NCBI GenBank assembly: GCA_026874595.1
Contig: CM049316.1
Span: 41,121,695-41,185,694, forward strand
Source: Sipunculus nudus
Taxonomy: Eukaryota; Annelida; Sipuncula; Golfingiida; Sipunculidae
Length of the DNA stretch: 64,000 nt
Reading direction: 5' to 3'
The notes below the pieces were generated by a model, which did not search any database, was not told the origin of the DNA, and saw nothing but the letters and a program-made list of their open reading frames with translations. A program made the translations under genes and the position numbers. This document shows positions 19,960-60,257 of this stretch, one piece after another. The first letter of the stretch is position 1, and the number at the start of each line of letters is the position of its first letter.

Positions 19960-20240
19960 ATACACATAACTTTGACATGCGATCTGTGACATCCAGGTTC
20001 TACTGTGTATGCAAAATGGCAGCCCCCATAACCGGTATCCAGAAACTGGGAGATAAAAATCTGTTAGGGTTCGATAAGGGCGCAGGATTGCGACACGAAA
20101 GAGTAACCAGGCAGAAATCTATGGACAGAGTTTGGGAGCACTTCAGGGGGACGTGTGCCTGAGTGTTAGTAAAAGCGTAAAAACGTTTTTGTGGGACCAC
20201 GCCCAAAATACATGTACTAGTAGGATATAAAAGTCAACAC
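19960..20240 (+). repeat. Dispersed promoter-like repeat, copy 2
   Basis: Homologous to 13400-13720. It ends with gggaccacgcccaaaatac and then ggatataaaagtc. It falls within the segment present in flank A and largely absent in flank B, so it is probably an insertion in A or a deletion in B. Confidence 0.5.
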
Positions 20241-20702: not shown

Positions 20703-23700
20703 TTACACCAACAGTAACAGGTTTGGGAGTTCATTTTTAATATGCTGTTCAATGTTCTTCACAACGCCATCACTCAACTTGTTATATCCAAGACGTAACC
20801 GGTAAAGTCCTGACAGTTGTTGTGTCATGTTGACGATCTGCTCCAGTCCGTCATCCAGGTGGTTGTCGTTCAGACTCAACATCCTCAGTGTAGGACATGA
20901 CGGGAGGGCGTCGATCAGCTGTAACACGGCCTGGGTGTCAGTCAGACCACAGCGGATCATGGACAGCGTGTCCAGGTGGGCGAGTGATGGGAGCTGCCGG
21001 GACAGCTGTACTACACTCTCATTACCTATGTTATTATCACTAAGATCTAACACTTGTAAAATACACAGTCCAGACAGCCGTGTGATACAGGCGGCCCAGG
21101 CCTGGTGTATTTGTTTACTTGTGTTTGTTTCATCATGACGTATACTGGTCATGTCATACACATCACAGCTACCCAGCAGCAGCTGTCTCATCTCACGCAG
21201 GTTGACCAGAGTCTCACCCAGCTGCTCCACACCTGCTGCAGTCAGTGACCAGTCTCTCATCTCCAGCACCTGCAGCCCGGGTGTGTACTGTAGACCGTTC
21301 ACTACAGCTACAGCTTCACCACGTCGATCACTCGGGCACCCAGCTACACGTAACTCACGGAGCCGGGGCAGACGCTGTAGCTGGCGGCTAAATGTCTCAT
21401 ACACAACACGGTCTGCTTTGTTTGTGTTTACCAGTGTCACACCTCGTTTTTTCCCGGTAAGCATTTTACCTGTCAGATCTAGCACCACGAGACCTGGTGT
21501 GTGGTGTAAGTTTTGTACGATCTCCTTCACAGCATTATGACGTTTACAGTAACACACTCGTAACTCTCTCAGCTCACTAAGCCTGCACAGCTGCTTCCCT
21601 AACTCTGTGAACACGTCAGACGTCACCTCGTTCTCCAGTAGATCTAGTGTATGTAATCTGGGCGTGTGCTGTAGTCCTCTGATCACTGGTCTCACGTCAT
21701 CTATCTGGTCACACCGACACAGACGGAGCTCACGGAGGCCTGGCAGGTGTTGTAGCTGAACCCCTAGATCTTTAATTGTTTTATCTGTGACAGGGTTATT
21801 TTTTGCATTTAATTCACTGTAAACCCATCGTTTTGACAGCTTTTCCTTTACACCAGATATATCAAGTACATTTAATCCTGTAGTGAATGGTAATTTATTG
21901 ATCACGTGTTCTAATGCATTTTTGTTTTGACATGTACACAGACGGAGGACTTTAAGTTCCTTCAACATTTTGAGCTCATCTCCTAATATCTTAAACACTT
22001 CCAGCTCGGCCATATTACCGGAGAGATCGAGCGTCTGTACGTGTGGTGTGTACTGTAACGCTGTCACTACTGGTTGTAAGGCTGAGGGTACGTCACATCT
22101 ACACAGACGGAGCTCACGTAACTCACCGGCCTCACGCATCCAGGCACCCACAGCCTTGTACATTTCAGGGCTCGCTCTATTTCCTGCAAGTCTGCCTCGC
22201 GTGTCTAACACGCTGGCTCCGATGGCGTCGGCGAAGTTACCTGACAAATCTAGTATCTGTAGTTTTGGGTTTTCTGGCAGAGATTTTATGACGGATAATG
22301 CCGCATTTTCAGATTCACAACGAAAAATTCGAAATTCTTTCAGCTTATTGAGCTTTGGAATGAGAGCAGCTGTAGCTTTACATATATCATCATCCGCCAC
22401 ACACCCTGCCAGGTCGAGTACCTGCACTTCAATACACGAGTCTAGACTCTTTACTACAGGATTTATATTACATTCTTGTGTATTCTGTTCATATAATCTC
22501 AGTTCTTCGAGATATTTTAGTTCGGCTTCTTGTTCTTTCAGATTGTCATAAGTCATTGTACTTGATAAAAGATTACAAACAAACAGTGATGTCAGTGATT
22601 GGTCAATAAACCTAGGTCCCTGATCATTAAACTGTCCCCCGCAGTAGAACATCTTATTCGGAGATGTCTCAATGACGGATGTACTGCTGCTTGCGTTCTC
22701 TCGTGGAACTGTCATCTCTTTATCTCTTTTTTGGTGGTACATGTTTATAGACACCCATCTAGGGGTCCATTTGAAAGCTTTTTCCAGGTTTGTAAAAAGT
22801 ATTGGGTCTGACTCATAACAGTGAATATCCAGGTTTGCTAAACCTTCTGTTCTTTCCAGCACTTCCAGCCAGTGTATCAGTACATCAACTCCTATACCAC
22901 AGTCACGGAAGGACATTTCCTCTGCTCGAGACAGTTTATGTTCAGCCGTCATTTTTATTTCTATGGTAATGCTGAAGTCACTCTGAGATACCTGAATTGT
23001 TGTTTCTTCACCTATCATGTCCGTGAATACACAAATATCATCAATGTTGATTTGATTGAATCCCGTCACTTCGACAAGATGTGCTTGTAGGTGGTGGGGT
23101 ATACCCATGGGTATGTCTGGTTTATAGTCGTCCTTAATTTCGTCTGTTTGACAAACCCTCAATAACTGTAAGTTTGGCGTCTTCATCATACTGATCATTC
23201 CCACGTGACATGCGTGACGTGCCCAGATTTTTAATTCTCTGACGTCATCAGCGTCCAAACTACAGTAGCGTTGTAATACCTCAGTTGGGTATCGGTCACT
23301 CAGCTCTAGTTCTATGATAGCAGGCAGTTTTATATCAATGTCTCCAAAATCAGCCAGGTAGGCGATCTGTACGGCTGTCTGAGACTTCGCCCGATCGCTC
23401 TTATAACCCTTGATTATGTTTTGTATGAAATCTGTCAGGAGTTGGCCTTTCATTCCCTTCAAGAAAGTGACGATCATATTCGCTTCACGTAGCGCGTTGG
23501 GCGCCTCGGATAGATAGGTCAGTAATTTCCATGCGGGCGGCTGATTCACAATTAAGAATGAAGAACGCTGTGAAGTTTTCTTGTACGGTCTTATGAGGAA
23601 AACTTACAAATTTGTCAGTAAGGGTGTGGTGTTCAAACTTAAGAAACCCCAGATCCCAAGTCGTGTCATCGAGCACTCTTCTGACTAAAGTATAAGAGAA

Positions 23701-24549
23701 CGTCAGAGCAAGTTGTTCTCCCATTAATCCATCTTTGGCAACCTCTGCTATCTTCATTAAATGATTATGGTATTTTTCAAGAATATGACTTTCTTCTAAA
23801 TTAACCTTTCCTTTCCCTAATCTTTTCTCAAGCCGACAGCAAATATATATAACAAATTCATGATAGAAGTCTGTGATGTTGTTCGCCAGTGTTTGCCTGT
23901 CACGCCACATGATACAAATAATAAGTAATATTGCAGGAAATCGGCTTAGTTCTATGGCTCCATCAGTCCTTTCGATGGCTGAAGACAAAGCCGATGCTTT
24001 CTCCTCGTCTTTAAAAAACCTTAATATGTAAGCAGATGTTCCTATCTCTGAGAAGCCGTGAAGTACAACATGTGACGTCAACAGATGACCATCATGTTTG
24101 TAGTGGAATTCTGGTGACAGTCTTGACGTTACTAAAAGGTGAACATGTTTCAGGGTTTGTCTGTGGGCTAGATCAGTCACGTGACTTGATACGGACTCTC
24201 GGTACTCGTCGTAGCCTTCTAGTATAATCAAGACTTTTCGTTCCGTATCTTCCAGAATCTGGAGAAATATTGGTGAACAACTATCGGGAATGCTGAGCTG
24301 GCGACAGATAACAGATTCTATATTTTCCTTTTCTTTCACGTCTCTCAGGAAAATGGGTACAATCAGGTCAAACTGTGAGAGTCGGCGGAACTGAGGACTT
24401 ATTTCTTTGTGGAACCATCTTTGAAATCGACTTATTTTCGTCTTTTTAGTAAGTGCCCAGTACATGAGTATTTTTTTCGTCATCGTTGTTTTTCCAGTTC
24501 CTGGTTGTCCTTGGATATAAACATGCAAGGGGTCATCAAGTGCAAACTC
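20703..24549 (-). CDS. Gene A exon 8: NACHT and leucine-rich repeats, frameshifted
   Basis: Single last exon of 3,847 nt, one base more than a multiple of three. Positions count from the exon start: Walker A GQPGTGKTT (14-22), NACHT Walker B VLIILEGYDEYRE (105-118), sensor-like TSRLSPEF (141-148), FPHKTVQENF (317-326) as in NLR post-NACHT helices, a ~320-residue region without a name, and LRRs (~640 to end). The LRRs follow pairs such as LRELRLCRCD / LQTLDLSGN, about 19 units of RNI-like alternating length. An extra base in agtaatttcc (23521-23530), compared with agtaactcc in gene B, shifts the frame; both sides are otherwise intact (24549 to ~23525, then 23549-20703). The open frames seen on the opposite strand over the LRRs are shadows. 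Confidence 0.85.
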
Positions 24550-27500
24550 CTGAAACGACAATATTTCCACAATTTTTTAATCATAAAATAACGCGGACAT
24601 ATAGAATATGCATATAAATTCGAGTGTATCCTTGGTAACGTAACGCTTCGGCATGAGTAATGTTAATATGGTATTTATATACCATTTCAAAAATCTCTGT
24701 GTAATCCTTCAAAGCAGTGCTCGTTAACTCAACTGCTGTTCGTTTAACTCTGACCCAAGACAGATCTGTGTATAATTCATCCATTGGAAGGGATATGGTT
24801 TCGTCGAACCAGGACCAGATTTCTATGTTTCCAAATCTTTTGATGATTGAGTTTATGGCAAGACTCTGTAGACGCAGCCAAGTTTTGATCGAATACTGAG
24901 CATTTCCTGCAGAATCATATAATATATATTTATTCAGATTAAGCATTTATCAAAACTAAACGAGATCGGAAGAATTCTACATTGTTTCCCAAAACCATTT
25001 GGTTAGGTCGTCTTAAATCAATTGACCAGTCATTGGAAACGATCATGTTACCCGAACAAAGCTGAGAAAATCACGAAATTAGCCCGGAGACTATGTTTTA
25101 CACTTATTAATTCGTTTTAATAATAAGACATTGATAAAGTTCAGCACCTTTTCTAAGTATCCACGGCACAGACTCTTCATTATTTTCCCTATCAGCATTC
25201 TTATGATATCTCTAGACATAGAAAGGAAGTGTCCATATCATATCCATTACAGACATCTCCATATACAGGATGAGTATGATAATATTTTTAAAAAATAGAA
25301 GAAAAACAATAAGTTTCAGCTAAACATCAGGAAAATCTTTTCGTCTTTATGTCAATTCAGAAACATATCTTAGTGACTTTTTTTGTCTATTTTATTGATG
25401 AAAAGCTTACCTTGCATACTCTAAAAAGTATTCCGACAAAAACCAAAATGAGTAAAACAATGACGCCTACAATGACACCAACGAAGATTCCAACAAGGTG
25501 GCCATGGAAAAGTCCTGAAATCAGAAATGAATTTTTGAATTCCTGTTTGTGGTTATGTTTTTATCAAGAAAGGGATGAAACTGTGCACTATGTGAGTATA
25601 TAGTGGTGCCTTACGTAGTACCATACTATTATAAACATGTTTTCCCACTATCAGTACACCAATTAAATCAATAATTCTTGCAATAATCCCATCACTATAG
25701 TCTCGTTGATGAATGTCTGAGGAAACATGCTGACAACGTGATAATTGTGAATGCCTAACCTTTATCATGCAAAATACATTAAAATATTAGAAAGTTAAAC
25801 AGTTTTTTTTTGTGTAAACCAAAACAAAACCATGCACGTGTATCACGTACATAAATTTAACAGTTATAGATTTTTTTTTTCACTTCAGCAACACTTTATC
25901 ACCGTTCACTATGCTGGTGTTTTGACATACACAAAAGAAAACATATGTATACACATAAATAATTCCCAGTAAAGCAAATTATGAAATTGGTAAAGGAAAT
26001 TGCCAAATTTGACAATTACAGTTATTTATATATTAAGTTTATGTAAAATAAAAACACACTTTTTGTAAATTGTGTAAAACTTAATAATAAAACAATATTT
26101 ATAAAATGTGTGTTTAAGTATAATATGATAATGAATTATAAATTAATACAAATATAATGAAATAAATAACAAAAAACTAAGATTATTATTATAAAAACTC
26201 TAATGATAATAGTGTTTGTAGAAATAATATCATCTCAATACTACAACCAATACAAACTTTAATAAAAGAAACAGAATAAAAATTTGTTATTCATAATTTT
26301 TATAATTATGATCACCTATAAGTTAACAACTGAGAAAATTATGGTAATGATAAAAATGAAATGAAGCTATAGAAAATAATAAATCGCAACATGTTAAATT
26401 AATTTGGTCTTTAAACAGTGGAGAATATTATAAGTTAACATGGTAGAGTTTCTCAGACGATTTTAATGTTAAGTTCTATGAACGCATACAACATCCTTAT
26501 TAATTCTCCGCGATTTCTCCGGCTCTCCGCCTTTCAGACACGGATCCCCCCCCCCCCCCCCCCCCCCATTTGTGCGGTATCGTGAATAATCTGTCTGCAA
26601 TGGCCGGGCAAACACACCTTTGATAGTTGACAACAGTTGATAACAAGAGACCCAGGGGTCTAATGTTCACTCTGTGAATTACTTTGCACGATGGCGGGCG
26701 ATTCAGAAAGAAAAAAGTGAATGTGAAAATACCATTCATTCCTTTCCAAGTGGACACTGTCCCATTGCACAAGGTAGGTGGTGCCTCCTGTGTGGTTTAC
26801 AAGGAAACTTTCCAATATTGATGCACATGCCAAATTTCAGACCAATATTCCTGAGATATGAACAATATTCACCCAAAGCAAATGTACGGATGACGCCATG
26901 GGAAAACGATTGCAGATGGCACCACCAGTCTTGTGTACAAGATAAAAAGTCCAAGATCTATGGATATGCACAATTGCAGTCCAGTACGGCAAATCACTCC
27001 TCAGAAAAAGGCATTACTTTTTCCTACGATAACAGGAAGGTAGGTGGTGCCACCTATCTGGTTTATGAGATTACTTTCCATGATGGATAGGTATGCCAAA
27101 TTTCAGACCAATACATTGAACCACTCATGAGATAAGAGCAGTTTTCATCTACAGCAAATGTACGGTCGGACGCCATGCCAAAACGATTGCAGATGGTGCC
27201 ACCAGTCTTGTTTACGAGATAGAGATGTCGAGTATCTATGGACATGCAGAATTTCAACCCAATACGCTGGAAAAACCACTAAGAAGAACATAAGGCACAC
27301 GCACAGATGGACACCAAGCAAAAGGAATGGTAGGTGGAGCCACAAGTCTCTATTACAAGATGGAGAGATTAAAGATCTATGGACATGCAAAATTTTAGCT
27401 GAATACGTTGAACCACTCAATGAAATATGGGCTGTTATCTAAAAGACACCCAGATTCATACTGCACAGAAAGGATTGCAGATGGCGCCATCCGTCATTGT

Positions 27501-32181: not shown

Positions 32182-35100
32182 TGCGAAGAATTTCGAGGTC
32201 ATCTATCTAGAGATTGACTGTCCAGCGAATTAATGTTACTAATAGGTCTTAGTTTGTTGAAGAATTTACCTTCACTTCATCTTAATGTGATAAACACGCT
32301 GTTGGCCGTATTGTGTGCATGAAATTGTTGCAGAGATGGACAGTTATTTAATAGTTATTTCTAAACTAAAGAACGTGTTAAAAATGCACATGAAATCGCG
32401 TATCGTACAGCAAAAAATTCTACATTTGTTATTTACCACCTGATTATAAAAAGGATACAAATATAATTTTAAAGAATAAAATAAGACTACTAATGTTATA
32501 TATTGACATATCGTTGTAAACGAAAACACACTGAACGTTTTTGTATTAGGGTTTTAAAAAAGATATGGACCTGAGGGACAAAACGGAGTCTCTTAGTGTT
32601 TGGTCACGATTACATGGTCATTATGTAGATGCGTCGTTGTATGAAAATTACATAAATATATAGAGTGTATTACGTTTATGATATTAAATGTATTAACTGA
32701 ACGGTGCATGTGATTAACATGCAAAACATTTATATTCTCAAAACAATCCCCCTCTCTGAGACGGAGAGAGAGAGAAGGGGGACGAACTTTCTCGTAAGGT
32801 GCAATAGCCGACATAGAGACCAGGGATGTATGCTAATTAATTTCAAGCCGCGTAATGAAACACCTGGGCATCACTTGTTTGCAAACTCTTCGAACAACGC
32901 TTGCATATAATACCTGTAGATCGCACTACTGCATACGTGTACATGTGTATATTTATATATTCTTTTTTATTAATGTATCTCATCTCCTATTTTCCAGATC
33001 GATTCTATTCACCATTCCTCACCCGTCATGAATTAAGGTATATGTCGACACGGAATCAGTGATTATCTCGACCGTCGCGAAAGTTAAGGACTTTATCGCC
33101 GATCACACGACGCATCGATCCTACGCAGACGTTTTGGATGGAAGACTTGTATACATAGAGCAATACATCTACCAATGGATCTGTATCACGTGTACCAGGC
33201 GTGCACACATCGTATAAGACACCTTGCATCACCTGCTATTTGTCGTTTGTACGGCTACGACTTGATATATTTTGTTTTGTGAATCAGACAAGTATTAAGT
33301 TTATAATACAAATTTCCACACAAGAGGATCTGGAATCACAACAGATGTAGCCATTTTTTTTTTTTTTTTTTTTTTGGAGGGGGACGAGATAGAACTGTGT
33401 GACGTGTTCACTAACTCAATATCACAGATGCTTAAATATATTATTAAGGTGCATACATCCGTCGCTTTTTTGCTGTTATTTTATTTATTTTATTAAATAA
33501 AATAAACAGCTGCTGAACATTATTAACGAGCGGATCTTTACAACTAAATGAAACAATGTGTTTCCTTTAAAACGTGTTTTCATTTCATCTCGAAGGATTT
33601 ATAAAATTAACACGATATAACTATGTGTGAAATATGATTTTTAGCTGTGGTCTATGCAATTACTCTTTGAGAAATACTATACAAGAGTTTTTCATATTAT
33701 CAATCAAACTTTTTCCTTTTAATATGGACATATGACGTATAATATTTATTCTAAGTGATATTATCTGACATCCCAGACTGATATATATATTTACATGATC
33801 CCCTAGAACCTTTCATGAACAAATGGTTCCAGGAAGAACCCTTCTGTAGGTTCTGAGAGGCACCAATAATCAGGGTTACATATACACCCTAAAGTTTCCC
33901 AAGGAACCCCCAGAGAGGGTTTCCCACTGGCGCCACTCTAAAGAACTAAGGGTTCTTCATGTAACCCTTTTTCTAAGAGTGAAGAGTGGTATAGCTCCAA
34001 TATATTATTTAGAGTTTTGTATAGACAAGGTAAAAAAAGAATACCATAGGATTCCAGACAAATGTACGGGTTGTCTTCATGACATTCTCTTGGTTCAAAC
34101 TTCCAGTTGTCTGCAGAGAACCTAAGGTGACCACATTTACCGATTTTCTTTTTATCCTGCAAATCCCAGTGGTCATAAATGGATTCTGTTGGAGGAATAT
34201 TAAATAACATTACCCGAAATGACATGAATAACATTCAGACAAAATTATACAGACAGTGATACCTCGGAGTATTCTTGGTTTATGTAACATTTTCGAATAG
34301 CGGATTGGTTTATTATGGTTAAGACATGCGTTTATACATTATTGTTAATGACTTATTAATGATAATTGGAATTAAAGCTTATTTTTATGGCAAAATGACC
34401 GATTTATTTGCAACATGTGGCTGGGGTATAACATATTGTGTACCCCACAAATTACACCCATGTGGATTTGGGTTATATTTTTCACAAGTTCTACAAACAG
34501 TTGACCGACGTGGCGCACGGGTCATAAGTTCTTGTTTGCATTGTTCACCTTGTTTTCAGGTAACAAGTAATATATATAGAAATGGAAACAAATTTGCACT
34601 TAATGCTGCCCGATATAATTATACATTGAATGACAAGACATCGAAAAATTCTTGAGAGATATAATGACTCAAATTATTACAACCGAAAAAAAGGGATAAT
34701 ATCTGGCTATAAGGCTATTCGATATTTCCTGGGGAAAATGAAAATCCTTTAAAAAGGTATCAAATTATCTCAAACGTATCATTATTCCTTTATCTTTCGC
34801 ACAGTTTTATTTATTTAATGCTTCAGGACGAGGTTCATATGTGATATCTGCAGCTATGTGAAATGTCACATAGCATAGTATCACCTTCCGGAAATCCGTC
34901 GTCGTTCAGCCATTCAATTCTCCTCAGACCGGTCCAGAACTTGCTCGGGCCCCATTTCCCTGTTGCCAGCACTTCTATTAAATCCTGCCCTCTGATGATG
35001 GTGAAGGTGTAGTTCCAACTTCGGCAGAAACGTCGTGCTTGATGCCACGTGTGTGGATTATCAAAGGCGACATAACACAGGCCCTGAAAACCGATCCCGA

Positions 35101-35906
35101 TGTCTCTAAGGTATCCACGAGTGCACTCTGTCCCTACAAACATGTTGTTTACAAACATATGATGACTATTTTGATATTCGGTGACTCATCATTTCAATTA
35201 TATGCTACCTTTCGTAAACCTTTGATGAAAGAAAAATTGAAGAGAGTTTCCTGCATGTCAGTTTCAAATGTAGATGCTGCCGTACAGGCCGCCCCCACTT
35301 ACCTCTAAATTGACATATACTGCCGACACTTCTATCAGAGCAATCACCTGCTTCAATGGTTTTAGTTATTTTGTTAAACCACGCACACGTTCCCATAGTT
35401 GTGTTCGTTACATCTTTTACTGAAAGAAGGGGAGCAATACTCAGTTTCAGAAAAAAAAATATTGTGTCAATAATCATTGTTATCAAAAATGATTTACGTG
35501 GAAGCCATGAATGATATAATCGAGCATTTACTTGCTTGATTTATATTGCGCCAGCCAAAGTCAATAAAATTAGCAGCATCGCATTAATTATTTTTCTGTC
35601 AGCTCCATTTGTTCTGCCAGTCAACAAAGCTAAAGTTAATAAAATACCACTCTTCCGTCCCCTCTCGGTGTACCAGCTGAATTTACTCACCATTTGTTGA
35701 CCCGTCTATCCATTTCCACTCTCCCATATCTTCAAGTCTGACGTTTATCCATGTGGCATCTTTTTTATCAAATCTCATTTGTGTGAGTAGGCTCGCGATA
35801 TGCGTCTTGTTGTGAACACCGGGTAATGATTTCCCATTATGCTGACAGCACACTCGTGCCTCCCACCAGTTATTAACCTTTCCACAAAGAGTTAATGATC
35901 CAGACT
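20703..35906 (-). CDS. Gene A: tandem C-type-lectin-like / TM / NACHT-LRR receptor (5' end missing, one frameshift)
   Basis: Eight exons: 35691-35906, 35303-35419, 34885-35133, 34045-34185, 25411-25514, 25148-25211, 24683-24906, 20703-24549. All junctions are GT-AG and the phases agree (1,1,1,1,0,1,0). The product order is CTLD1, CTLD2, one transmembrane helix, ~100 juxtamembrane residues, NACHT, LRRs. Hydrophobic residues followed by LFRVCK place the NACHT-LRR in the cytosol. NLRs use NACHT ATPase switching to oligomerise and signal, and CTLDs bind ligands outside the cell, so an extracellular sensor with an NLR output is inferred. The start and signal-peptide exon lie upstream and were not found. 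One extra base at about 23524-23529 breaks the last exon's frame. The 8.5-kb intron 4 is filled with repeats. The alternative, two separate genes, is disfavoured because the lectin exons end mid-codon and the copies match exon by exon. Confidence 0.75.
24683..24906 (-). CDS. Gene A exon 7: conserved pre-NACHT domain
   Basis: 224 nt between attctgcag and aatg|gtatat, exactly the length of its gene B partner. Encodes a helix (SIKTWLRLQSLAINSI) and then the block IEIWSWFDETISLPM followed by ELYTDLSWVRVKR, nearly invariant between copies. A 'xLPMxELYTDLxW' segment just before a NACHT recalls the stretch preceding the NTPase in many NACHT proteins. A specific domain name is not assigned. Confidence 0.8.
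25148..25211 (-). CDS. Gene A exon 6: short acidic juxtamembrane exon
   Basis: 64 nt between ctatgtctag and aaag|gtgctg. Encodes HKNADRENNEESVPWILRK, acidic and followed by W-hydrophobic-basic. Gene B's 64-nt exon (EHEEAAEWFLQK) keeps the pattern but little exact sequence. Function unknown. Confidence 0.75.
25411..25514 (-). CDS. Gene A exon 5: transmembrane segment
   Basis: 104 nt between tgatttcag and caag|gtaagc. Encodes about 26 hydrophobic residues (GIFVGVIVGVIVLLILVFVG) followed by ILFRVCK. Basic residues after the helix give a type I orientation. Gene B has a 104-nt counterpart in the same phase (1 in, 0 out). Confidence 0.85.
26546..26567. repeat. Poly-C run in gene A intron 4
   Basis: About 22 consecutive C. 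Confidence 0.9.
26770..27600. repeat. Tandem array, ~265-bp units, gene A intron 4
   Basis: Units start near 26772, 27039 and 27328 with aaggtaggtggtgccacct-type text. They share 'ccaaatttcagaccaatat', 'gcaaatgtacgg' and 'aaacgattgcagatgg'. Gene-like open frames inside are by-products of the repeat. Confidence 0.75.
27630..28412. repeat. Second tandem array, ~265-330-bp units, gene A intron 4
   Basis: Units start near 27630, 27896 and 28228 (aaagaccattacagcc...cagaaagta) and share 'gaaggctgcagcagttcc' and 'aaattttgcgatcgacaca'. It ends gacgccggacgccgcgccat then ggcatacg, an ending common in bivalve dispersed repeats. Confidence 0.75.
28413..31440. other. Gene A intron 4, AT-rich part
   Basis: No exon recognised. 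It holds two oppositely oriented pieces of a repeat: 'agtggctgatttaggacacag' at about 29530 and its mirror 'gtgtcctaaaacagccaccg' at about 30807. It also has a C-run at about 30362-30375 and (TA)n at 30546-30584. Confidence 0.5.
31459..31600. repeat. 'AAGGGTTCTT' palindromic repeat, copy 1
   Basis: Rich in mirrored aaggttc/gaacc text (ttctagaagaaacc, aaggttccatctgg). It matches the reverse complement of 33790-33990 at its end (ctaagaaaaaggttt). Probably a MITE. Confidence 0.45.
31926..31980. repeat. (TA)n microsatellite
   Basis: Long alternating A/T tract followed by imperfect (TA) with catgtg interruptions to about 32018. A further (TA)n lies at 32149-32179. Confidence 0.95.
32180..33789. 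other. Gene A intron 4, distal part
   Basis: A small (GA)-rich patch occurs at 32758-32776 and a T-run at 33353-33375. No exon recognised. Confidence 0.5.
33790..33990. repeat. 'AAGGGTTCTT' palindromic repeat, copy 2
   Basis: ctagaacctttcatgaac, ggttccaggaagaaccc and aagggttcttcatgtaaccc give repeated mirror sequence. It lies in intron 4 and ends about 55 bp before exon 4 of gene A, in opposite orientation to copy 1. Confidence 0.5.
34045..34185 (-). CDS. Gene A exon 4: end of CTLD2
   Basis: 141 nt between ctccaacag and tatg|gtattc. Encodes GKCGHLRF and then PRECHEDNPYICLES, a typical CTLD close (C...PYIC). It ends one base into a codon, so it is not a terminal exon. The next acceptor of matching phase found is the transmembrane exon at 25514. 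Confidence 0.8.
34885..35133 (-). CDS. Gene A exon 3: first part of CTLD2
   Basis: 249 nt between tttgtag and gaag|gtgata. Encodes GFQGLCYVAF, TWHQARRFCRSWNYT and KFWTGLRRIEWLNDDG, i.e. a second lectin-type fold with its own WxQAxxFC helix and FWTGLRR core strand. Confidence 0.85.
35303..35419 (-). CDS. Gene A exon 2: second half of CTLD1
   Basis: 117 nt between ctttcag and agag|gtaagt. Encodes TCAWFNKITKTIEAGDC and GSICQF, the closing cysteine pairs of a CTLD. The usual EPN/QPD and WND calcium-site motifs are absent. Confidence 0.85.
35691..35906 (-). CDS. Gene A exon 1: first half of CTLD1
   Basis: Enters after ttttgtacag with two codon bases and leaves at aatg|gtgagt (phase 1). It encodes LCGKVNNWWEARVCC and then TWINVRLEDMGEWKW and IDGSTN. 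These are C-type-lectin fold marks: early cysteine, WWEAR helix, W-W core. It is 216 nt, the same as gene B. It starts inside a codon, so another exon must lie upstream. Confidence 0.85.
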
Positions 35907-51522: not shown

Positions 51523-54500
51523 TTACACCAACAGTAAAAGGTGTGGGAGTTCCTTTTTAAAATGCTGTTTAATGTTCATCACAACGCCATCACTGCACTC
51601 GTTATGTCTAAGATATAACCAGTGAAGTCCTGACAGTTGTGTCATGTTGACGATCTGCTCCAGTCCGTCATCCAGGTGGTTCTGGCTGAGACTCAACACC
51701 CTCAGTGTAGGACATGACGGGAGGGCGTCGATCAGCTGTAACACGGCCTGGGTGTCAGTCAGACCACAGCATCTCATGAGCAGCGTGTCCAGGTGGGTGA
51801 GTGATGGGAGTTGCCGGGACAGCTGTACTACACTGTCATAACCAATGTTATTATCACTAAGATCTAACACTTGTAACAGACACAGTTCAGACAGTCGTGT
51901 GATACAGGCGGCCCAAGCCTGGTGTATTTGTTTACTTTTATTTGTTTCATCATGACGTATACTGTTCATGTCAAACACATCACACTCACCTAGCAGCAGC
52001 TGTCTCATCTCACGAAGGTTGACCAGCCTATCACCCAGCTGCTCCACACCTGCTGCAGTCAGTGACCACCTTCTCATCTCCAGCACCTGCAGCCCGGGTG
52101 TGTACTGTAGACCGTTCACTACAGCTACAGCTTCACCACGTCGATCACTGGGGCACACACCTACACGTAACTCACGGAGCCGGGGCAGACGCTGTAGCTG
52201 GCGGCTTAATGTCTCATACACAACACGGTGTGCTTCGTTTAAGTTTACTCGTGGTACTACTCGTTCCTTCCGGGTAACCATTTTACCTGTCAGATCTAGC
52301 ACCACGACACCTGGTGTGTGGTTTAAGTTTTGTACGATCTCCTTCACAGAATTATGACGTTTACAGTAACACACACGTAACTCTCTCAGCTCATTAAGCC
52401 TGTACAGCTGCTTCCCTAAATCTGTGAACACATCAGACGTCACCTCGTTCCCCAGTAGATCTAGTGTATGTAATCTGGGCGTGTGCTGTAGTCCTCTGAT
52501 CACTGGTCTCACGGCATCCACCTGGTCACATCGGCACAGACGGAGCTCACGTAGATCTGGCAGATTTTCCAGCTGAACCCCTAGATCCTTGTATAGTTTA
52601 TGTGTGACATGGTTATATTTTACATTTAATTCACTGTAAGCCCATCGTTTTGACACTTTTTCCTTTACACCAGATATATCAAGTACATTTAATCCTGAAG
52701 TGAAATGTAATTTATTTATCACGTAATCTAATGCATATTTGTCTTCACACATACACAAGCTGAGGACTTTAAGCTCCTTCAACATTTTGAGCTGATCTCC
52801 TAATATTTTAAACACTTCCAGCTCGGCCATGTTACCGGAGAGATCGAGCGTCTGTAAGTGTGGAGTGTATTGTAACGCTGTCACTACTGGTTGTAAGGCT
52901 GAGGGTACGTCACATCTACACAGACGGAGCTCACGTAACTCACCGGCCTCACGCATCCAGGCACCCACAGCCTTGTACATTTCAGGGCTCGCTATATTTC
53001 CTCCAAGTCTGCCTCGCGTGTCAAACACACTGGCTCCGGTGGCGTCGGCAAGGTTACCTGACAAATCTAGTATTTGTAATTTCGGGATTTTTGACAGGGA
53101 TTTAATGACAGGCAATGCCGCATTTTCAGATTCACAACGAAAAATTCGAAATTCTGTCAGCTTATTGAGCTTTTGGATGAGAGCAGCTGTAGCTGTACAT
53201 AAATCATGGTCTTCCACGTATCCTGCCAGGTCGAGTACCTGCACTTCAACACACGAGCCTAGACCCTTTACTATAGCATTTATATTAATCTCTTGTGTAT
53301 TCGCTTCATCTAATCTCAGTTCTTCGAGATATTTTAGTTTGGCCACTTGTTCTTTCAGATTGTCATAAGTCATTGTGCTTGATGAAAGATTACACACAAA
53401 CAGTGAGGTCAGTGATTGGTCAACAAACCTAGGTCCCTGATCATTAAACTGTCCCCCGCAGTAGAACATCTTATTGGGAGATGTCTCAATGACGGATGTG
53501 CTGCTGCTTACGTTCTCTCGTGGAACTGTCATCCCTTCATCTCTTTTGTGGTGGTACATATTTATAGAGGCCCTCCTTAGGGTCCATTTGAAAACTTTTA
53601 TCAGGTCTATAAATAGTTTTGTGTCCGCCTCATAACAGTGAATATCCAGGTGTGCTAAACCTGCTGTTCTTTCCAGCATTTCCAGCCAGTGTATGAGAAC
53701 ATCAACTCCTATACCACAATCACGGAAAAATATTCCCTCTGCCAGAGACATTTTATGTTCAGTCGTCATTTTGGTTTCTATGGTAATGCTGAAGTCACTC
53801 TGAGATACCTGAATTATTGTACCTTCACCTATCATGTCAGTAAATACACAAATATCCTCAATGTTGATATAATTGAATCCCGTCACTTCTACACGATGTG
53901 CTTGCAGGTGGTGGGGTATGCCCATCGGTATATCTGGTTTATAATCCGTAACTTCGTCTGTTGGGTAAACTTTTAGTGTTTCTAAATTTGGTGTGTTCAT
54001 CATCCTGATCATTCCCAGTTTGCTCACGTGACTTGCCCAGACTGAGATTTCCCTGACGTCATCAGCGTCCATACTGCAGTAGCGCTGTAATACCTCAGCT
54101 GTGTAATGGTTACTCATCTCTAGTTCTATTTTTGCAGGCAATTTTACATTGCTGTCTCCAAAATCAGCTAGGTAGGCTATCTGTACGGCTGTTTGAGTCC
54201 TCCCGCGATCGCTACTGTTTCCTCTAATGACGTTTTCTATAAATGCAGTCAGAAGTTCCCCTTTCATCCCTTTTAAGAATGTAACAATCATGTTCGCTTC
54301 TCGTAGCGCGTTAGGCGCCTCAGACAGGTTGGTCAGTAACTCCATGCGGGTGGCTGAGTCACAGTGAACAATGAAGAAGGCTGTGAAGAATTCCTGTACG
54401 GTTTTGTGCGGAAAACTAACAGACTTTTCCGCTAGATTCTTGTGTTCACATTTTAAAAATCCAAGTTCCCATGCTATTGGATCGAGCACGCTCCTCACAG

Positions 54501-55346
54501 AATCATACGAAAATGTTGGTGAAAGTTGTTCACCAATCAGTCCATCCTTAGCTACCTCTGCTATCTGCATTAAATACTGATGGTACTTTTCAATGATATA
54601 GTCCACTTTCAAATTATAATTTTCCAGTCTTTTCTCATACCGACAACAAATATATACAATAAATTGTTTATAAAAGTCAGTGATATTGTTAGCAAGCTTA
54701 TGCATGTCACGCCACATTATACAAATAATGAGCAATATCGCTGGAAATTGACTTAGGTCTACGGCACCAGGGGTGCTTTCAATGGCATGTGATAAATGCG
54801 ACACCGTTTCCAGATTCCTGAAAAATTTGATATGTAGACAGTTTTTCCGATCTCCGAGAAACCGTGAAGTAATACATGTGACGTCAGAAGGTGATTATCG
54901 TGCCTGTAATGGAACTCGGGAGAAAGCCTAGATGTTACCAATAGGTGAACGTGTTCCATTGTCTTCCTGTGAGCTAATTCAGTCACGTGACTTGATGTGT
55001 TCTCCCGGTACTCGTCGTATCCTTCTAGGATGATCAAGACATTTCTGTTTGGATCTTCCAGGATACGTCTGAATATCGACGCACACCTGTCATGGATGTC
55101 CAGCTGTCGACAGATGACGGACTCCGCAGTTTCGTTTTCCATCACATCTCTCATAAATATTGGTAGGATAATGTCAAATTGAGAAAGTCGACGGAATTTA
55201 ATCCTAAATAATTTAACAAGTCTGAATAAAAGATTCGACTTGGTATACAAAGCCCAGTCAAGAATAATTTTCTTTGACATTGTTGTTTTTCCACTTCCCG
55301 GCTGACCTTGAATATATACGTGGAGAGCCTCGCCACGGCTGTTTCC
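51523..55346 (-). CDS. Gene B exon 8: NACHT and leucine-rich repeats, frameshifted
   Basis: 3,824 nt, one base short of a multiple of three. Positions count from the exon start. Walker A GQPGSGKTT (14-22), Walker B VLIILEGYDEYRE (~105-118), TSRLSPEF (~141-148), FPHKTVQEFFTAFF (~315-330) and ~19 LRR units (LRELRLCRCD, LQTLDLSGN, LRVLSLSQN) to the stop at 51523-51525. The frame breaks at an A-run on the plus strand (54821-54825, five bases), where gene A has six in its equivalent TTTTTT. The halves 55346 to ~54826 and ~54820 to 51523 are open. The LRR portion is roughly 90% identical in protein to gene A by eye; the NACHT is about 75%. Confidence 0.85.
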
Positions 55347-56889
55347 CTGAAAAGTGTAAAATTTAATATGTTTAATGTAATGAAATATAATGAATTCCTT
55401 TATTTAGAATGTAATCTTTGACAGATACTGTTCGTGTTAGAAATTTTCGATAGAAACTTACAAATATATACTTAAATAGGTTGGCTCTTAATGAATCTTA
55501 AAAATAATATACCCGGTCAAAAATATCTGTATAATCCTGAAGAAATGTCCTCGTCACGTTTGCCGCGGCCCGTTTAACTCTAACCCAAGACAGGTCGGTA
55601 TAGAGTTCTTTCATTGGTAGTGCTATTGTCTCGTCGAACCAGGACCAGATTTCAATGTGTCCAAATCGTTTTGTGATTGAGTCTATAGCCACATTTCTCA
55701 GGCGTGACCACGTTTTCCGTGAGTATTTAATGCTTTCTAAAATTGCAGAGTTATATTAGATTTATTTTGCATAGAAAACAAATGGGTCTTCTTTGGCTGT
55801 ACTAGAAAATGCTCGTTTCTTAGTTGCTTTTCAGTTCAGTGTTATTTTTGTATCACCTGGAAAACGCAGCTAATCGAAATGACTATCTCGTTCATAATGG
55901 GCTACCTTAAAATGTGGAGACAAAATATATTTTAAATTATAGGCGATCGGCTCTATTTTCTATCGGATAATTTAAGTCGCTTTATGTAGGCAATATGGAA
56001 TTATTGTTTAGAAAAACAACCACTTCAGTTCTAAATGATATGCATATATTGACAATTAATATTCTTTTTAAGCATTTGGCTAGAATGCGCTTAAGTTTAC
56101 ATGAAGCAGGGGCGGATCCAGGATTTATGAAAAGGGGGGGTCCAACCCAGGAGGACTAATGAAAATCCTAAAAAAAAGGTCATCACTTCCGGAAAAGAGG
56201 GGTCCAGGCCGCAAAATTTTGTCTAAAAGCCTTTAAAAAAGGTTGTTTCGGATGAAAAAGGGGGGGTCCGGACCCCCTGGACCCCCCCTGGATCCGCTTC
56301 TGTGAAGCAGGAAGAAGATAATCACTGGTGGAAAGAGCACATTTTCCTCCCTCGAGAATATTAAAAAGACTGTGTACACGGTATCGCATGTATAAGGAAT
56401 TAAAACAGAAAATGAAGACAGTGATAGGTGAAATATTACCTTTTTGCAGAAACCACTCTGCAGCTTCTTCGTGTTCCGTGTGATCAGTATTATGGCACAA
56501 ATTCTAGATACAGATAAAGGATGCCAAACTTTATTTATTAGATAACATTAAACTTAATTGATTTAAAAAGTAATGGTCGGTCTAGGGAACATCCCAACAA
56601 AAATGCGATGCATGTAAAATTTATTATAGACGAGCTCTTATCAGCTGTCTGATGTGCATTTTTTTCTAAATGTTTATTCATCACTACACATGCCAAACGT
56701 CTGGGTATAAAATAAATATCAATAAAAGGTACACTTACCAATTTTCTTTTAAACAGGACACCGACTAAAACCGTCATTAAAACTGTGCCAACTATAATTC
56801 CCACTACGCTTACGGCAATTTTCAGATTGGAAAGAAAATTACCTAAAATGTCACAACATAATATATCTGTAAATGCATTAGTTTGCTCG

Positions 56890-56945
<56 letters not shown>

Positions 56946-57762
56946 CAAGCCACCCTCAGAATCTTTGAACAGGTACACTTTTTGGTCAATGCCAAAATTA
57001 AATATATTCCAGTTTAGGATTAACATTTTATAAGCGGACAGTAACAGTGGATGTGACACAGAATGCATGCGAATGATCAGTGTCTGGTGTTGATCATTAA
57101 GTGCAACTGCTAATTAGTAACTATTGCCCTGGGCAAGGGGGACCTTACCCTGGTACCTCCTCTCAGAGTAATTTGTGACAGGGTGAATGAGCAAGGCGTC
57201 CACTCATGGTATTAACTATAGCACTTCCTTAGCTTTCCTTACATAAGAAAGTCTAGTGTTTGTAAGATCAAAGTATGCTTATCAGTACAGTATGAATGGC
57301 AATTGACCGGTGCATTCAATGCTGGCTGTAAACGATTACCAAAACAGCCAGTCTGGGCTGAGGTCTGAACGGAGTAGTGTTGGCACATTTAAGAAGTCTT
57401 ATTGCTATGACATTGAGACAAGAAAAATGATTATTATGATTATGCAATTAGACAAAAATACACCTCTGACATTTGTTCATCTGTTTGACCATAATCATTA
57501 ACAGTTGAAATATAAATATTTAATAATTAACAGTTATTCTGATGGCTTATAATTACAAAGTCACAATAAAAAGTCCGACAAGTTTAAATTGGAAGATAAA
57601 ATAACTTTTAAAATCGATGAAGCGCCCACATTAGCAGAGGAAAAGTGCCCACTTTCCAGAATATAGTGGTGCCCACATTAGCTAAACTTAATAAACAGAG
57701 GGAAAAAATAGGGACTGCCCAAAGGCCCCTTTTTATAGAGGTGCCCACTAAGTGAGGTTTGA

Positions 57763-57814
<52 letters not shown>

Positions 57815-59982
57815 CGTGTGTGCGTGTGTGGAGAAATTCGTCAAATGTTACCATTCGTGGTCGTTGCCGTTTTGAATTCAGTATTATTTTTCACTTGTGG
57901 CGGTTCTAAAATGAATAAGAAAGTAAGATGTAATAGGAATACATTTAAATACACCGCACAGAAATATAATAGGATAAAACATAAAAGGATAGCATATTTC
58001 GTTGTATTTAGTGTCCCAAATGCATGATAGTATATTTATTGATTTACATTAAGAAAATTAACCGATGATTATGAATCGTTAGTCACTTTTTTCGATACAG
58101 AAATCCTATTTATTTATTTATCTTTAAATAAGTTGCTGCACTCCCTTAGCAATCTGATAATTAGAGATGATGTAAAGGAAATAGAAGTTATTAAGGAATT
58201 TCCAAAAGGTAAGAACATACTGTTCCGTGCCAAACAGACATATGGGGATTTTTTGTGGCACACTGTAGGACTAAAAATGACAGTGTCTGGGGATGATGAT
58301 CTAAGGCGGCCACATTTTCCGTAACCAGGTTGAACTCGGGAGTCCCAATAATTATAGATAAACTCTGAAGAAAAAGTGTAGATATACATGGTAGTATCAA
58401 CATTACATAGAAAATATGAAACTCAATGAAAAAAAAACAGAATATGTATAATCTAGCGAAGCGGTTGGGACGCCGGACTTGTACGCCACCGACATGGGTT
58501 CGACTCCTGGATCGGCCCAGGAATTTCCTCTCATTTATTTGTCTTCGTAACAAAATGGGGGCTCGTCTAACGTGACGATTAACTTTGTGCCCCAGGGAAT
58601 AAGTTCACAAAAGTGTGACTCCTGGGATAATTAGTCTTGTTCTGATAGCAGAACGCTCTTAAGAGGGGGTGTGTTACGGGGTGACATAAAAGCGGACAGA
58701 ACTGTCTCGCTATAGTGAAGCTTGCTTTGCTAGCGAAGCGGTTGGTACGCCGGACTTACTTCGTAACAATAAGCAATACTACCGTTGGAAAAAGAAAGGA
58801 AAGATTGAAAGACACTTTTAGATACCACCTTCTGGATTTCCATCACTGAGCCACTCAACTCTCCTCAGACCGACCCAAAACCTGCTTGTCACCCACGTCT
58901 TCTTGGCCAACACGTCCATCACGTCTTGGTCTCTAATGATCGACAGTGTGTAGTTCCATCTCCGGCAGAAAGCACGTGACTCATGCCATGTGTATCCCCT
59001 TCCAAAATGAACATAGCAGATTCCTCGGAAGCCTACGCCTGTCATTTGGAGGTGACCAAATGAACATTCGGGATCTGAGGGAAGAAATTAATTTTCAATA
59101 AATGAATGTCTGTTAATTTAACAAAAAGCGTATTGTCTACACATTGTCGAAGTGTTTACAGCGACTCAAATTATCTTTATATTTACAAGACGAGCGAATG
59201 CTTCCAAAAAGGCCTGGATCCATATTTAAAATCTCCAAAATATATTCAAAGTAAGACAAATAAACTGAAATTTGAAAATCAAAAATAGATGTGCTTAAAT
59301 AAAATAAGGAAAGATTGTGTGGATCATGTTAAATAATTGCCAGAATATACATATTCAGCAATATACGCCACCATTCCTAAACTGTTTAATTTGTTTGTCC
59401 ATAAAATACTTCAAATTTAATCCATTCACTCCATTATGCAAATACTTTTGATGTACCCGTGACACACTTAAAAAAGTATTAATTTATACGTTGATCGTGT
59501 TGACCGGCAAAGCAAACAAACAAATGATTAAAGTAGATTGTAGATTTTGAGTCTACTGGTGTTGACAAAAGATTATAAACACACCATTAAATTGGCATAT
59601 GCTGCCGATGTTCCTTTCCGAGCAGTCACCGGCTTCAACATTCCTAGTTTTCTGGTTATACCACGCACAGGTACCGTTTACTTCATTTTTGTAGCCTTTA
59701 TCTGAAACGTAAAATTGTAGTTTTTAAAGGAGTGATTCAAAAGAAGAGAAAATGACTTTTTTTGTATTAAAATTGTTAAGACATATATATCTACCAGTCT
59801 CCTTCTTACCTAACTTGATTATTTGATGAACGGATATTTCGAGGTTTTAGCTGTTGTTTAATGACACAGGGGAACCAATACTGGACCAATATTTTATAAA
59901 GTGAAGAGAAGGCAGTAAAAAACGGATCAGAACTCATGTTCGTGCCACAGTCATTGCATTAGGGCCGAAGCTGGCATCTAGT

Positions 59983-60028
<46 letters not shown>

Positions 60029-60257
60029 TGTTATTATTCACCATCCGTTGATCCATCTACCCACTGCCAAGCCCCCATGTCGTTAAGTTGCACATTGATC
60101 CATGTTGTTTCCTGTTTGTTTTCTTTTATTTTTTCTCGTACTCGATAAAGGTCTGACTGGTTATGAACACTTGAAAGTTCTGCCCCTTTCTGGTCGCAAC
60201 ATATCCGAGCTTCCCACCAATTGTTGAGTTTCCCACAGAACCTGCCGTTTGGAATCT
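51523..60257 (-). CDS. Gene B: tandem C-type-lectin-like / TM / NACHT-LRR receptor (5' end missing, one frameshift)
   Basis: Eight exons: 60042-60257, 59585-59701, 58829-59074, 58221-58364, 56739-56842, 56440-56503, 55513-55736, 51523-55346. Order, phases and most lengths equal gene A. In the recovered ~1,645 residues: CTLD1 ~1-111, CTLD2 ~112-241, TM ~245-270, juxtamembrane to ~371, NACHT from ~380, LRRs ~1010 to the end. Introns are compact (intron 4 is 1.4 kb versus 8.5 kb in A), which makes the lectin-to-NACHT linkage clearer here. Probable membrane pattern receptor whose cytosolic NACHT-LRR would signal; ligand and partners are unknown. One base is missing in a homopolymer at 54821-54825, breaking the last exon. 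The start exon was not found. Stop-to-stop spacing to gene A is 30.8 kb, head-to-tail. Confidence 0.8.
55513..55736 (-). CDS. Gene B exon 7: conserved pre-NACHT domain
   Basis: 224 nt between gcaattttag and ccgg|gtatat. Encodes SRKTWSRLRNVAIDSITKRF, IEIWSWFDETIALPMKELYT and DLSWVRVKR. Over the 28 residues from IEIWSWF to VKR only two differ from gene A. Confidence 0.8.
56440..56503 (-). CDS. Gene B exon 6: short acidic juxtamembrane exon
   Basis: 64 nt between tatctag and aaag|gtaata. Encodes NLCHNTDHTEHEEAAEWFLQ plus K. Same length and phase as gene A exon 6, with weak sequence match. Confidence 0.7.
56739..56842 (-). CDS. Gene B exon 5: transmembrane segment
   Basis: 104 nt between cattttag and attg|gtaagt. 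Encodes IAVSVVGIIVGTVLMTVLVG then VLFKRKL, a ~23-residue helix with a basic cytosolic edge. Confidence 0.85.
56893..56942. repeat. (TA)n microsatellite, gene B intron 4
   Basis: About 50 bp of alternating A/T, 50 bp from the transmembrane exon acceptor. Confidence 0.95.
57765..57810. repeat. (TA)n microsatellite, gene B intron 4
   Basis: About 46 bp of alternating A/T followed by a short GT-rich patch. Confidence 0.95.
58221..58364 (-). CDS. Gene B exon 4: end of CTLD2
   Basis: 144 nt between tttcttcag and aaca|gtatgt. Encodes NYWDSRVQPGYGKCGRLR and CHKKSPYVCLARN. QPG stands where a sugar-binding CTLD might have QPD. Ends in phase 1 and joins the transmembrane exon in frame. Confidence 0.8.
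58455..58760 (+). mobile_element. tRNA-derived SINE, family 1, in gene B intron 3
   Basis: Head agcgaagcggttgggacgcc with B-box-like gggttcgactcctgg. The body ends gtgtgactcctggg and cgctcttaagagggggtgtg, matching 16066-16335. A second head begins at about 58733 (agcgaagcggttggtacgcc) and is cut short. Gene A's intron 3 lacks it, so insertion came after the duplication or was lost in A. Confidence 0.7.
58829..59074 (-). CDS. Gene B exon 3: first part of CTLD2
   Basis: 246 nt between ttccctcag and gaag|gtggta. Encodes GFRGICYVHF, TWHESRAFCRRWNYT and RFWVGLRRVEWLSDGNPE. One codon shorter than in gene A. Confidence 0.85.
59585..59701 (-). CDS. Gene B exon 2: second half of CTLD1
   Basis: 117 nt between acgtttcag and aatg|gtgttt. 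Encodes GTCAWYNQKTRNVEAGDC and IGSICQF. The cysteine spacing is as in gene A exon 2, with no WND motif. Confidence 0.85.
59985..60025. repeat. (AG)n microsatellite, gene B intron 1
   Basis: About 41 bp of alternating A/G on the plus strand, beginning 16 bp past the exon 1 donor. Confidence 0.95.
60042..60257 (-). CDS. Gene B exon 1: first half of CTLD1
   Basis: 216 nt between cctttcccag and gatg|gtgaat. Encodes FCGKLNNWWEARICCDQKG, then TTWINVQLNDMGAWQW and VDGSTD. By eye about 46% identical to gene A exon 1, with cysteines and tryptophans kept. An (AG)n tract starts 16 bp past the donor. Confidence 0.85.

What the first reader, a model, noticed from the sequence alone, without database searches (positions are those of the whole stretch)
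51523..60257. Membrane-anchored NLR: two C-type-lectin-like domains fused through a TM helix to a NACHT-LRR
Seen: eight consecutive minus-strand exons with GT-AG borders and compatible phases encode CTLD-CTLD-TM-juxtamembrane-NACHT-LRR, and the last lectin exon ends mid-codon, so it must join downstream. Known: animal NLRs are usually soluble cytosolic proteins with death-fold, TIR or similar N-terminal domains, while CTLDs are extracellular. Inference: this would be a plasma-membrane lectin-type sensor with an NLR as its signalling half, an architecture I do not know as described.
Basis: partly seen in the sequence, partly recalled or inferred. Interest (0 to 1): 0.93.

Follow-up and report, generated by a model that had tools for sequence, protein, structure and literature searches.

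The report
Membrane lectin receptors fused to NLRs
This animal genome holds a large family of genes that appear to join a cell-surface lectin-like receptor to an immune switch protein that is normally free inside the cell, and the gene in this window is one copy, possibly a recently broken one.

Summary
Nine minus-strand exons (not eight) keep one frame from CTLD1 and CTLD2 through a linker and one TM helix into NACHT. A signal-peptide exon with the right phase lies 3.9 kb beyond the window. The predicted product is type I: signal peptide, CTLD, CTLD, TM, a conserved pre-NACHT block (e8), NACHT, LRR.

It is not a one-off. A second copy lies at 20.7-35.9 kb with matching splice sites, except the linker exon. 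Genome-wide, 50 of 117 e8-like exons have a CTLD2-like exon within 6 kb upstream on the same strand, and 0 in the other three side/strand classes. A copy on another chromosome has an unbroken 1,275-residue NACHT-LRR frame. Four sampled e8 loci without CTLD linkage showed no TM exon; two of three scanned gave sub-threshold CARD matches.

Membrane NLRs are published (sea cucumber Ig-TM-NACHT); eight searches of an open-licence library found no CTLD-TM-NACHT-LRR. No transcript was seen and the mechanism is inferred. Verdict: new variant of a known kind.

The parts
60042..60257 (-). e1, CTLD1 first part (phase 1 in, phase 1 out)
   Evidence: splice sites; Lectin_C; copy B homologue 51% aa identical over 65 residues
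59585..59701 (-). e2, CTLD1 second part (phase 1-1)
58829..59074 (-). e3, CTLD2 first part (phase 1-1)
   Evidence: also recovered by the genome search with a distant homologue
58221..58364 (-). e4, CTLD2 second part (phase 1-1, ends mid-codon, no stop)
57852..57905 (-). e5, short Thr/Asn-rich linker exon (phase 1-1)
   Evidence: no counterpart found in copy B or in C, D, E
56739..56842 (-). e6, transmembrane exon (phase 1 in, phase 0 out)
   Evidence: the only 19-residue hydropathy peak above 1.6 in the 585 residues read; TM exon with the same phase in copies B, C, D, E
56440..56503 (-). e7, juxtamembrane exon, no Met
55513..55736 (-). e8, conserved pre-NACHT block (WSW core), no Pfam family
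51523..55346 (-). e9, NACHT plus LRR exon with a frame break near 54.83 kb
35691..35906 (-). copy B e1 (CTLD1)
   Evidence: same length as A e1
35303..35419 (-). copy B e2 (CTLD1)
34885..35133 (-). copy B e3 (CTLD2)
34045..34185 (-). copy B e4 (CTLD2)
25411..25514 (-). copy B transmembrane exon
   Evidence: same length and phase as A e6
25148..25211 (-). copy B e7
24683..24906 (-). copy B e8
20703..24549 (-). copy B NACHT-LRR exon with its own frame break near 23.52 kb

Best explanation
The locus is one copy of an expanded gene family that encodes single-pass type I membrane NLRs: signal peptide, two C-type-lectin-like domains outside, one TM helix, a short juxtamembrane stretch, the e8 pre-NACHT block, NACHT and LRR inside. 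Most likely working (inferred): the paired CTLDs bind a microbial or cell-surface ligand and cluster. This brings the cytoplasmic NACHT switches together at the membrane, where they exchange nucleotide and oligomerise. They then signal either by nucleating soluble CARD-type NLRs that share the same e8-NACHT core, or by driving uptake, as reported for the sea cucumber Ig-TM-NACHT receptor. Shown by sequence: the architecture, its recurrence, past purifying selection. Not shown: transcription, surface location, ligand, output. The window copy itself carries a frame break, so it is either a recent null allele or a sequence error. The confidence given is for the architecture as one gene; for the mechanism it would be about 0.4.
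For: Nine exons with AG/GT borders and one frame up to the break in e9. Signal-peptide exon of 67 nt in phase 1, the only candidate in 11.7 kb upstream of A, and a same-length, same-phase candidate in copy C, the stronger of two there. A single TM peak in the 585 residues read (the rest of e9 was not scanned for TM). Copy B has all counterparts except e5, with the same phases. Copies C and D on C11 and E on C17 follow the same order, D without an e1 match and E without an e7 match; E's NACHT-LRR is one 1,275-residue open frame. All 4 distant e8 loci fetched for this purpose show CTLD exons and then TM (TM of L046); Pfam counts two Lectin_C stretches in each of the 3 of these 4 that were scanned. 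Linkage 50 of 117 against 0, 0, 0 and a shifted control mean of 0.74. A TM exon within 1.5 kb upstream in 21 of 25 CTLD-linked e8 loci (15 by the strict scan; 6 more by homology without a splice-site check) and 0 of 5 unlinked (linkage). A/B dN/dS (NG86) 0.12 in e8, 0.09 and 0.14 in two NACHT-side pieces and 0.46 in LRR, 0 stops in the pieces compared of either copy. P-loop GQPGSGKTT and an acidic Walker-B-like LEGYDE remain (read; motif names recalled).
Against: No RNA evidence of any kind. Frame breaks in e9 of copies A, B and C and at least two lesions in D, so the intact form rests on E and the wider family. Exon e5 was found in no other copy. E gave only one Lectin_C stretch at E<=0.01; its CTLD1 is weak. 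Only 13 of the 50 linked e8 places have a NACHT hit from the capped one search list within 8 kb downstream. The CTLD lists are capped, so 50 of 117 is a lower bound and the unlinked class is impure. dS of the CTLD exons e1, e3 and e4 could not be computed (saturated), so selection on most of the ectodomain is not shown. No downstream effector domain is present, so the signalling step is a guess.
Confidence: 0.85

Rival explanations
1. Two neighbouring genes, a CTLD-TM receptor and a soluble NLR, lie head to tail and were duplicated together; no joined protein is made.
For: No transcripts were seen. CTLD and NACHT exons are both abundant here.
Against: The pairing recurs at 50 of 117 places on nine contigs, upstream and on the same strand in every case within 6 kb. 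In A the lectin and TM exons have no stop before their donors and compatible phases. e7 and the first 20 residues of e8 have no Met in A, B or C, so an NLR-only product would need an unseen first exon or a cut e8. The four sampled e8 loci without CTLD linkage show no TM exon in the nearest 4 kb.
Confidence: 0.06
2. The architecture is real in the family, but copy A (and B) is a recently broken pseudogene.
For: One single-base frame break each in A and B, two in C, at least two lesions in D, while E is open. 97 of 99 listed NACHT matches elsewhere in this assembly have no stop inside the match, which argues against a general base-error problem, though a frame break would not show as a stop there.
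Against: 0 stops in 925 LRR codons of either copy, where one lineage decaying neutrally for half of the observed dS would gain about 12 (minimum 4 in 300 simulations). Both breaks lie in short runs of one base, where sequencing errors gather. dN/dS is below 1 in every piece for which it could be computed.
Confidence: 0.45
3. The protein is a phagocytic receptor, like sea cucumber AjNLRC4, in which the cytoplasmic part recruits actin machinery, and not an inflammasome-type switch.
For: Nearest published analogue: extracellular Ig, TM, cytoplasmic NACHT, binds bacteria, internalised through actin (PMC8699970, passages read).
Against: AjNLRC4 lacks LRR and is described with two TM helices; here LRR is kept and one TM is found in the part read. 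No endocytosis motif was tested.
Confidence: 0.3
4. Chance hydrophobic exon and misread splice sites; the NLR is an ordinary soluble one.
For: TM exon sequence is poorly conserved (38% aa identity A/B over 29 codons).
Against: Strict TM-exon candidates in 15 of 30 loci against 16 of 600 shuffles and 1 of 30 antisense; all 15 are CTLD-linked.
Confidence: 0.02

Closest known systems
AjNLRC4 and AjNLR-new of the sea cucumber Apostichopus japonicus (PMC8699970, PMC13133943; passages read)
   Same: NACHT in one chain with TM and a non-LRR recognition domain; AjNLRC4 is reported on the plasma membrane with the recognition domain outside and NACHT inside.
   Different: Ig instead of CTLD, no LRR in AjNLRC4, two TM helices reported; AjNLR-new is reported with NACHT outside. 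Here: two CTLDs, one TM in the part read, LRR kept, 50 linked e8-CTLD2 places in one genome.
Transmembrane NLRs of sea anemones (PMC5094078, passages read)
   Same: NLRs with N-terminal TM segments, proposed to be membrane-bound.
   Different: 3-5 TM segments and no lectin ectodomain in the passages read; here one TM and a 260-residue ectodomain.
Sponge NLRs with TM (Dysidea avara, PMC12909245, passages read)
   Same: Putative membrane-bound NLRs.
   Different: The passages give no lectin ectodomain; 'C-type lectin' does not occur in the text.
Oyster proteins with a Cys-rich extracellular domain, TM and intracellular DED-TRADD-N module (about 50 in Crassostrea virginica, PMC8195603, passages read)
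   Same: Lineage expansion of receptors that join an ectodomain through one TM helix to an apoptosis-type module in a bivalve.
   Different: Cytoplasmic half is DED and TRADD-N, not NACHT-LRR; the ectodomain is not called CTLD in the passage.
Death- and HEPN-type NACHT expansion of pearl oyster Pinctada fucata (PMC9646362, passages read)
   Same: Large lineage-specific NACHT family.
   Different: No lectin is mentioned in the text, and no TM is tied to NACHT in the passages read.
Type I C-type lectin receptors (recalled)
   Same: Signal peptide, CTLDs, one TM.
   Different: Cytoplasmic half is NACHT-LRR, not a short tail; canonical EPN/QPD and WND motifs not seen in copy A.

Membership tests
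Animal NLR (NACHT-LRR) | NACHT NTPase domain | tested here: met
   Pfam NACHT 2e-13 in A, 9.5e-15 in B, 5.1e-20 in E
Animal NLR (NACHT-LRR) | C-terminal LRR | tested here: met
   LRR_4 7.7e-13 in A, LRR_14 1.2e-10 in E; in A it lies beyond the frame break
Animal NLR (NACHT-LRR) | N-terminal death-fold or other effector domain | tested here: not met
   Only Lectin_C passes its cut-off in the e1-e8 product of A. A passage of PMC11797021 calls NLRs with NACHT and LRR alone 'bona fide'
Animal NLR (NACHT-LRR) | Cytosolic protein | tested here: not met
   Predicted signal peptide and one TM; prediction only
Type I transmembrane C-type lectin receptor | Signal peptide, CTLD, single TM | tested here: met
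   predictions
Type I transmembrane C-type lectin receptor | Canonical Ca2+/sugar motifs EPN or QPD with WND (recalled) | tested here: not met
   Read by eye in the translations: none in A; L044-L047 have EPS in the expected area but no WND
AjNLRC4-type membrane NLR | Recognition domain outside, NACHT inside, one chain | tested here: met
   frame and topology; prediction only
AjNLRC4-type membrane NLR | Ig ectodomain | tested here: not met
   Lectin_C, no Ig, in A and in the 4 ectodomain models scanned
AjNLRC4-type membrane NLR | LRR absent | tested here: not met
   LRR present
AjNLRC4-type membrane NLR | Surface location and bacterial binding | not testable with these tools
   needs protein work

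The most novel reading that the evidence does not exclude
The genome carries a two-tier NLR system. Dozens of membrane lectin-NLRs with diversified twin-CTLD ectodomains act as sensors, and soluble CARD-NLRs with the same e8-NACHT core act as helpers. Ligand binding outside the cell would nucleate mixed NACHT rings under the plasma membrane, so an inflammasome-like response starts from an extracellular signal without a Toll-type adaptor. The lectin-TM module would have taken the place of the death-fold module by exon shuffling.
Probability: 0.2. Interest if true: 0.95.

Novelty: new variant of a known kind. Interest (0 to 1): 0.82.

Why it matters
Cell-surface sensing and cytosolic NLR switching are usually handled by different proteins. 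A family that joins them in one chain, with 50 linked e8-CTLD2 places in one genome, would be a direct route from an extracellular pattern to a NACHT oligomer. It would make testable whether NLR switches can be driven by clustering at the plasma membrane. With tandem copies and paired ectodomains, it could also be a large innate recognition repertoire in an invertebrate.

Tried and rejected
Tried without profit: a NACHT tree of 18 rows to count origins of the lectin-TM form gave 4 changes, with one origin not ruled out. Signal-exon candidates of E, L044, L046 and L047 were several and not convincing; B gave two weak ones and L045, with only 880 bases upstream, none. Cross-searches with signal peptides were noise, and its output was cut. 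e8 has no Pfam family: four families matched one member each, best 0.0024, none twice. I suspected that e8 matches the FISNA region of NLRP3 (recalled), but the PDB profile search aligned only the NACHT side to NLRP14 and NLRP3, so I do not claim it. The CARD call in loci without CTLD linkage is below the Pfam cut-off (21-22 bits against 23.9) in 2 of the 3 loci scanned (L050, L052), because I gave half-domain exons; L049 gave no CARD hit and L051 was not scanned. In one search the automatic choice of splice sites took non-homologous borders for some exons (for example C e2 and e3, L044 e1). I used those models only for domain scans and trimmed some by hand. L047 was scanned without its e2, and L044 was not scanned as a joined ectodomain. 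The organism was not identified; 'bivalve' is my guess from NLR expansions and is not tested. No structure prediction was run, because the spliced protein is not letter for letter in the DNA.

Rejected: a mini-intron at the frame break of A. The acceptor-like TTTTTCAG is there, but the nearest upstream GT would leave a 22-base intron, and the protein similarity to B is continuous across it (by eye).
Full report
What is there. On the minus strand of the window, nine exons run from 60257 to 51523: e1 60257-60042, e2 59701-59585, e3 59074-58829, e4 58364-58221, e5 57905-57852, e6 56842-56739, e7 56503-56440, e8 55736-55513, e9 55346-51523. All have AG acceptors, e1-e8 have GT donors, and the phases fit: e1 to e5 are phase 1-1, e6 is 1-0, e7 is 0-1, e8 is 1-0. 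Pfam gives two Lectin_C stretches, NACHT and LRR. The limits it gave are those of e1 and e9.

Start of the gene. I fetched the 8 kb beyond the window. In 11.7 kb upstream of e1, a scan for an ATG exon with a hydrophobic core and a phase-1 donor gave exactly one candidate, of 67 nt, at C11:41189575-41189641. Copy C has a candidate of the same length and phase 1.85 kb upstream of its e1, the stronger of two found there. Read with this exon, the frame is open for 585 codons into the NACHT domain. The ectodomain is 260 residues with 12 Cys and 4 N-glycosylation sequons. One hydropathy peak above 1.6 is found, followed by KRK. The rest of e9 was not scanned for TM. This is a type I layout with NACHT-LRR inside.

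The frame break. The NACHT-LRR exon of A is covered by two overlapping ORFs in different frames. Comparison with copy B shows a single-base length difference near 54.83 kb; B has its own near 23.52 kb. C has two breaks in e9 (three ORFs of 182, 444 and 702 residues), and D has a stop in e4 and a break in e8. E on C17 has one open frame of 1,275 residues. In the 1,597 codons compared, A and B show 0 stops. dN/dS (NG86) is 0.12 in e8, 0.09 and 0.14 in the two NACHT-side pieces, 0.46 in LRR, and 0.08, 0.40 and 0.28 in the short exons e2, e6 and e7; for e1, e3 and e4 dS is saturated. One lineage decaying neutrally for half of the LRR dS would gain about 12 stops, minimum 4 in 300 simulations. So the copies were under selection until recently, and the breaks are either recent nulls or sequence errors. 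I cannot decide which.

A second copy and three more. Copy B in the same window has e1-e4, the TM exon, e7, e8 and e9 in the same order; its e1-e8 exons have the lengths of A or differ by whole codons (borders read by eye). Only the small linker e5 was not found. Copies C and D lie 2 Mb away on C11, and E on C17. C has all but e5. D has no match for e1. E has no match for e7, and its TM exon was recognised by hydropathy and phase, as were those of C and D. In A against B the LRR part is far younger (dS 0.21) than e8 and NACHT (dS 1.4-2.3), which suggests conversion or exchange of the LRR end.

A gene family. The e8 block gave 56 matches with A's e8 as query and 113 with a distant e8. Four places seen only were added, giving 117. 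Three queries for the first CTLD2 exon gave 201 places, merged by hand. Each search scores at most 150 candidates (424, 201 and 791 were seen), so this is a lower bound. Of the 117 e8 places, 50 have a CTLD2-like exon within 6 kb upstream on the same strand. None has one upstream on the opposite strand, downstream on the same strand, or downstream on the opposite strand. With e8 places shifted by 0.1-1.5 Mb the mean is 0.74 and the maximum 5 in 500 draws. At 10 kb the counts are 51, 7, 3 and 0. The 50 lie on C17 (35), C12 (4), C11 (3), C6 (3), C16, C2, C3, C4 and C7 (1 each). They include near-identical tandem copies and damaged copies such as D, so they are neither 50 independent events nor 50 proven genes. 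Only 13 of the 50 have a NACHT hit from the list within 8 kb downstream. That list holds 99 matches from 98 scored of 417 candidates and does not include A or B, whose NACHT is certain, so this count says little. Of the 117, 44 have a listed NACHT within 3 kb downstream on the same strand and 0 on the opposite strand.

TM exon as an independent mark. In 30 e8 loci with 1.5 kb upstream, a strict scan found a TM exon with the phase of e6 in 15, against 16 of 600 shuffles and 1 of 30 antisense. Homology to those TM exons added six, without a check of splice sites. So 21 of 25 CTLD-linked loci have it and 0 of 5 unlinked (linkage within 12 kb). The remaining four linked loci were not searched further upstream.

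What the unlinked e8 loci carry. In four of them (8 kb each) no TM exon candidate was seen in the nearest 4 kb. Exon-sized stretches of L050 and L052 match Pfam CARD at 3e-4 and 2e-4, below the family cut-off; the stretch of L049 gave no CARD match, and L051 was not scanned. I read this as a shared e8-NACHT body with either a death-fold or a lectin-TM front. This is suggestive, not shown.

Working. Shown by sequence: architecture, recurrence, past constraint, intact P-loop. Inferred: surface location, ligand binding by the CTLDs, clustering, NACHT oligomerisation. The CTLDs of A lack the canonical EPN/QPD and WND motifs (motifs recalled, sequences read by eye), so calcium-dependent sugar binding is not to be assumed. 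Without a death fold the protein needs a partner: either a soluble CARD-NLR through NACHT contacts, or the actin machinery as reported for AjNLRC4.

Comparison with the literature. All papers were seen as passages, at most 12 each. PMC8699970 describes AjNLRC4 as extracellular Ig, TM, intracellular NACHT, on the membrane, binding bacteria and mediating phagocytosis. PMC13133943 describes AjNLR-new with the reverse topology. PMC5094078 reports NLRs with 3-5 N-terminal TM segments in sea anemones, and PMC12909245 putative membrane-bound NLRs in a sponge. PMC9646362 counts over 200 NACHT genes in pearl oyster, some with death or HEPN fronts. PMC8195603 describes about 50 eastern oyster proteins with a Cys-rich ectodomain, a TM helix and an intracellular DED and TRADD-N module, a similar layout with another cytoplasmic half. 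Passages of four more papers name no CTLD-TM-NACHT protein. Eight searches of an open-licence library found none in their listings. Subscription papers and database gene models were not searched, so a prior description cannot be excluded.

Verdict. The finding is real as an architecture and larger than described: a family, not a single gene. The window copies may be broken. Membrane NLRs exist in print, so this is a new variant of a known kind, of high interest, with the joined transcript as the one missing proof.

Noticed in passing
window 20703-24549 and 51523-55346: LRR parts of copies A and B are much closer to each other (dS 0.21) than their e8-NACHT parts (dS 1.4-2.3), as if the LRR end was exchanged or converted.
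   Followed up: partly
G000 C17:54757525, 54768469, 54779413, 54791559 (minus): Three e8 places with equal scores, 10.94 kb apart, and a fourth 12.1 kb further, each with a CTLD2 hit upstream: it looks like a recent tandem array of the family.
   Followed up: no
G000 C17: 68 of 117 e8-like exons lie on C17, many between 2.3 and 4.9 Mb and between 47 and 60 Mb: an NLR-rich chromosome.
   Followed up: partly
L050, L052: Two of three scanned e8 loci without CTLD linkage have CARD-like exons (below cut-off), and none of the four sampled has a TM exon candidate, suggesting a swap of the N-terminal module on a common e8-NACHT body.
   Followed up: partly
NACHT places C13:52745258, C9:39667626, C6:12187769 and nine others: 12 of 53 NACHT hits without a detected e8 still have a CTLD2-like exon within 12 kb upstream on the same strand, against 0 upstream opposite, 1 downstream same and 0 downstream opposite, so the family may extend beyond e8-type NLRs.
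   Followed up: no
window 9708-10142 (+): Open frame with a weak WSC-domain match (0.0052, 17.4 bits, below the cut-off of 27.8), unrelated to the finding.
   Followed up: no
window 19353-20006 and 50588-51241: Beyond the 3' ends of copies B and A a further block of about 0.65 kb is 84% identical between them, so the LRR end and its 3' flank seem to have moved together.
   Followed up: no
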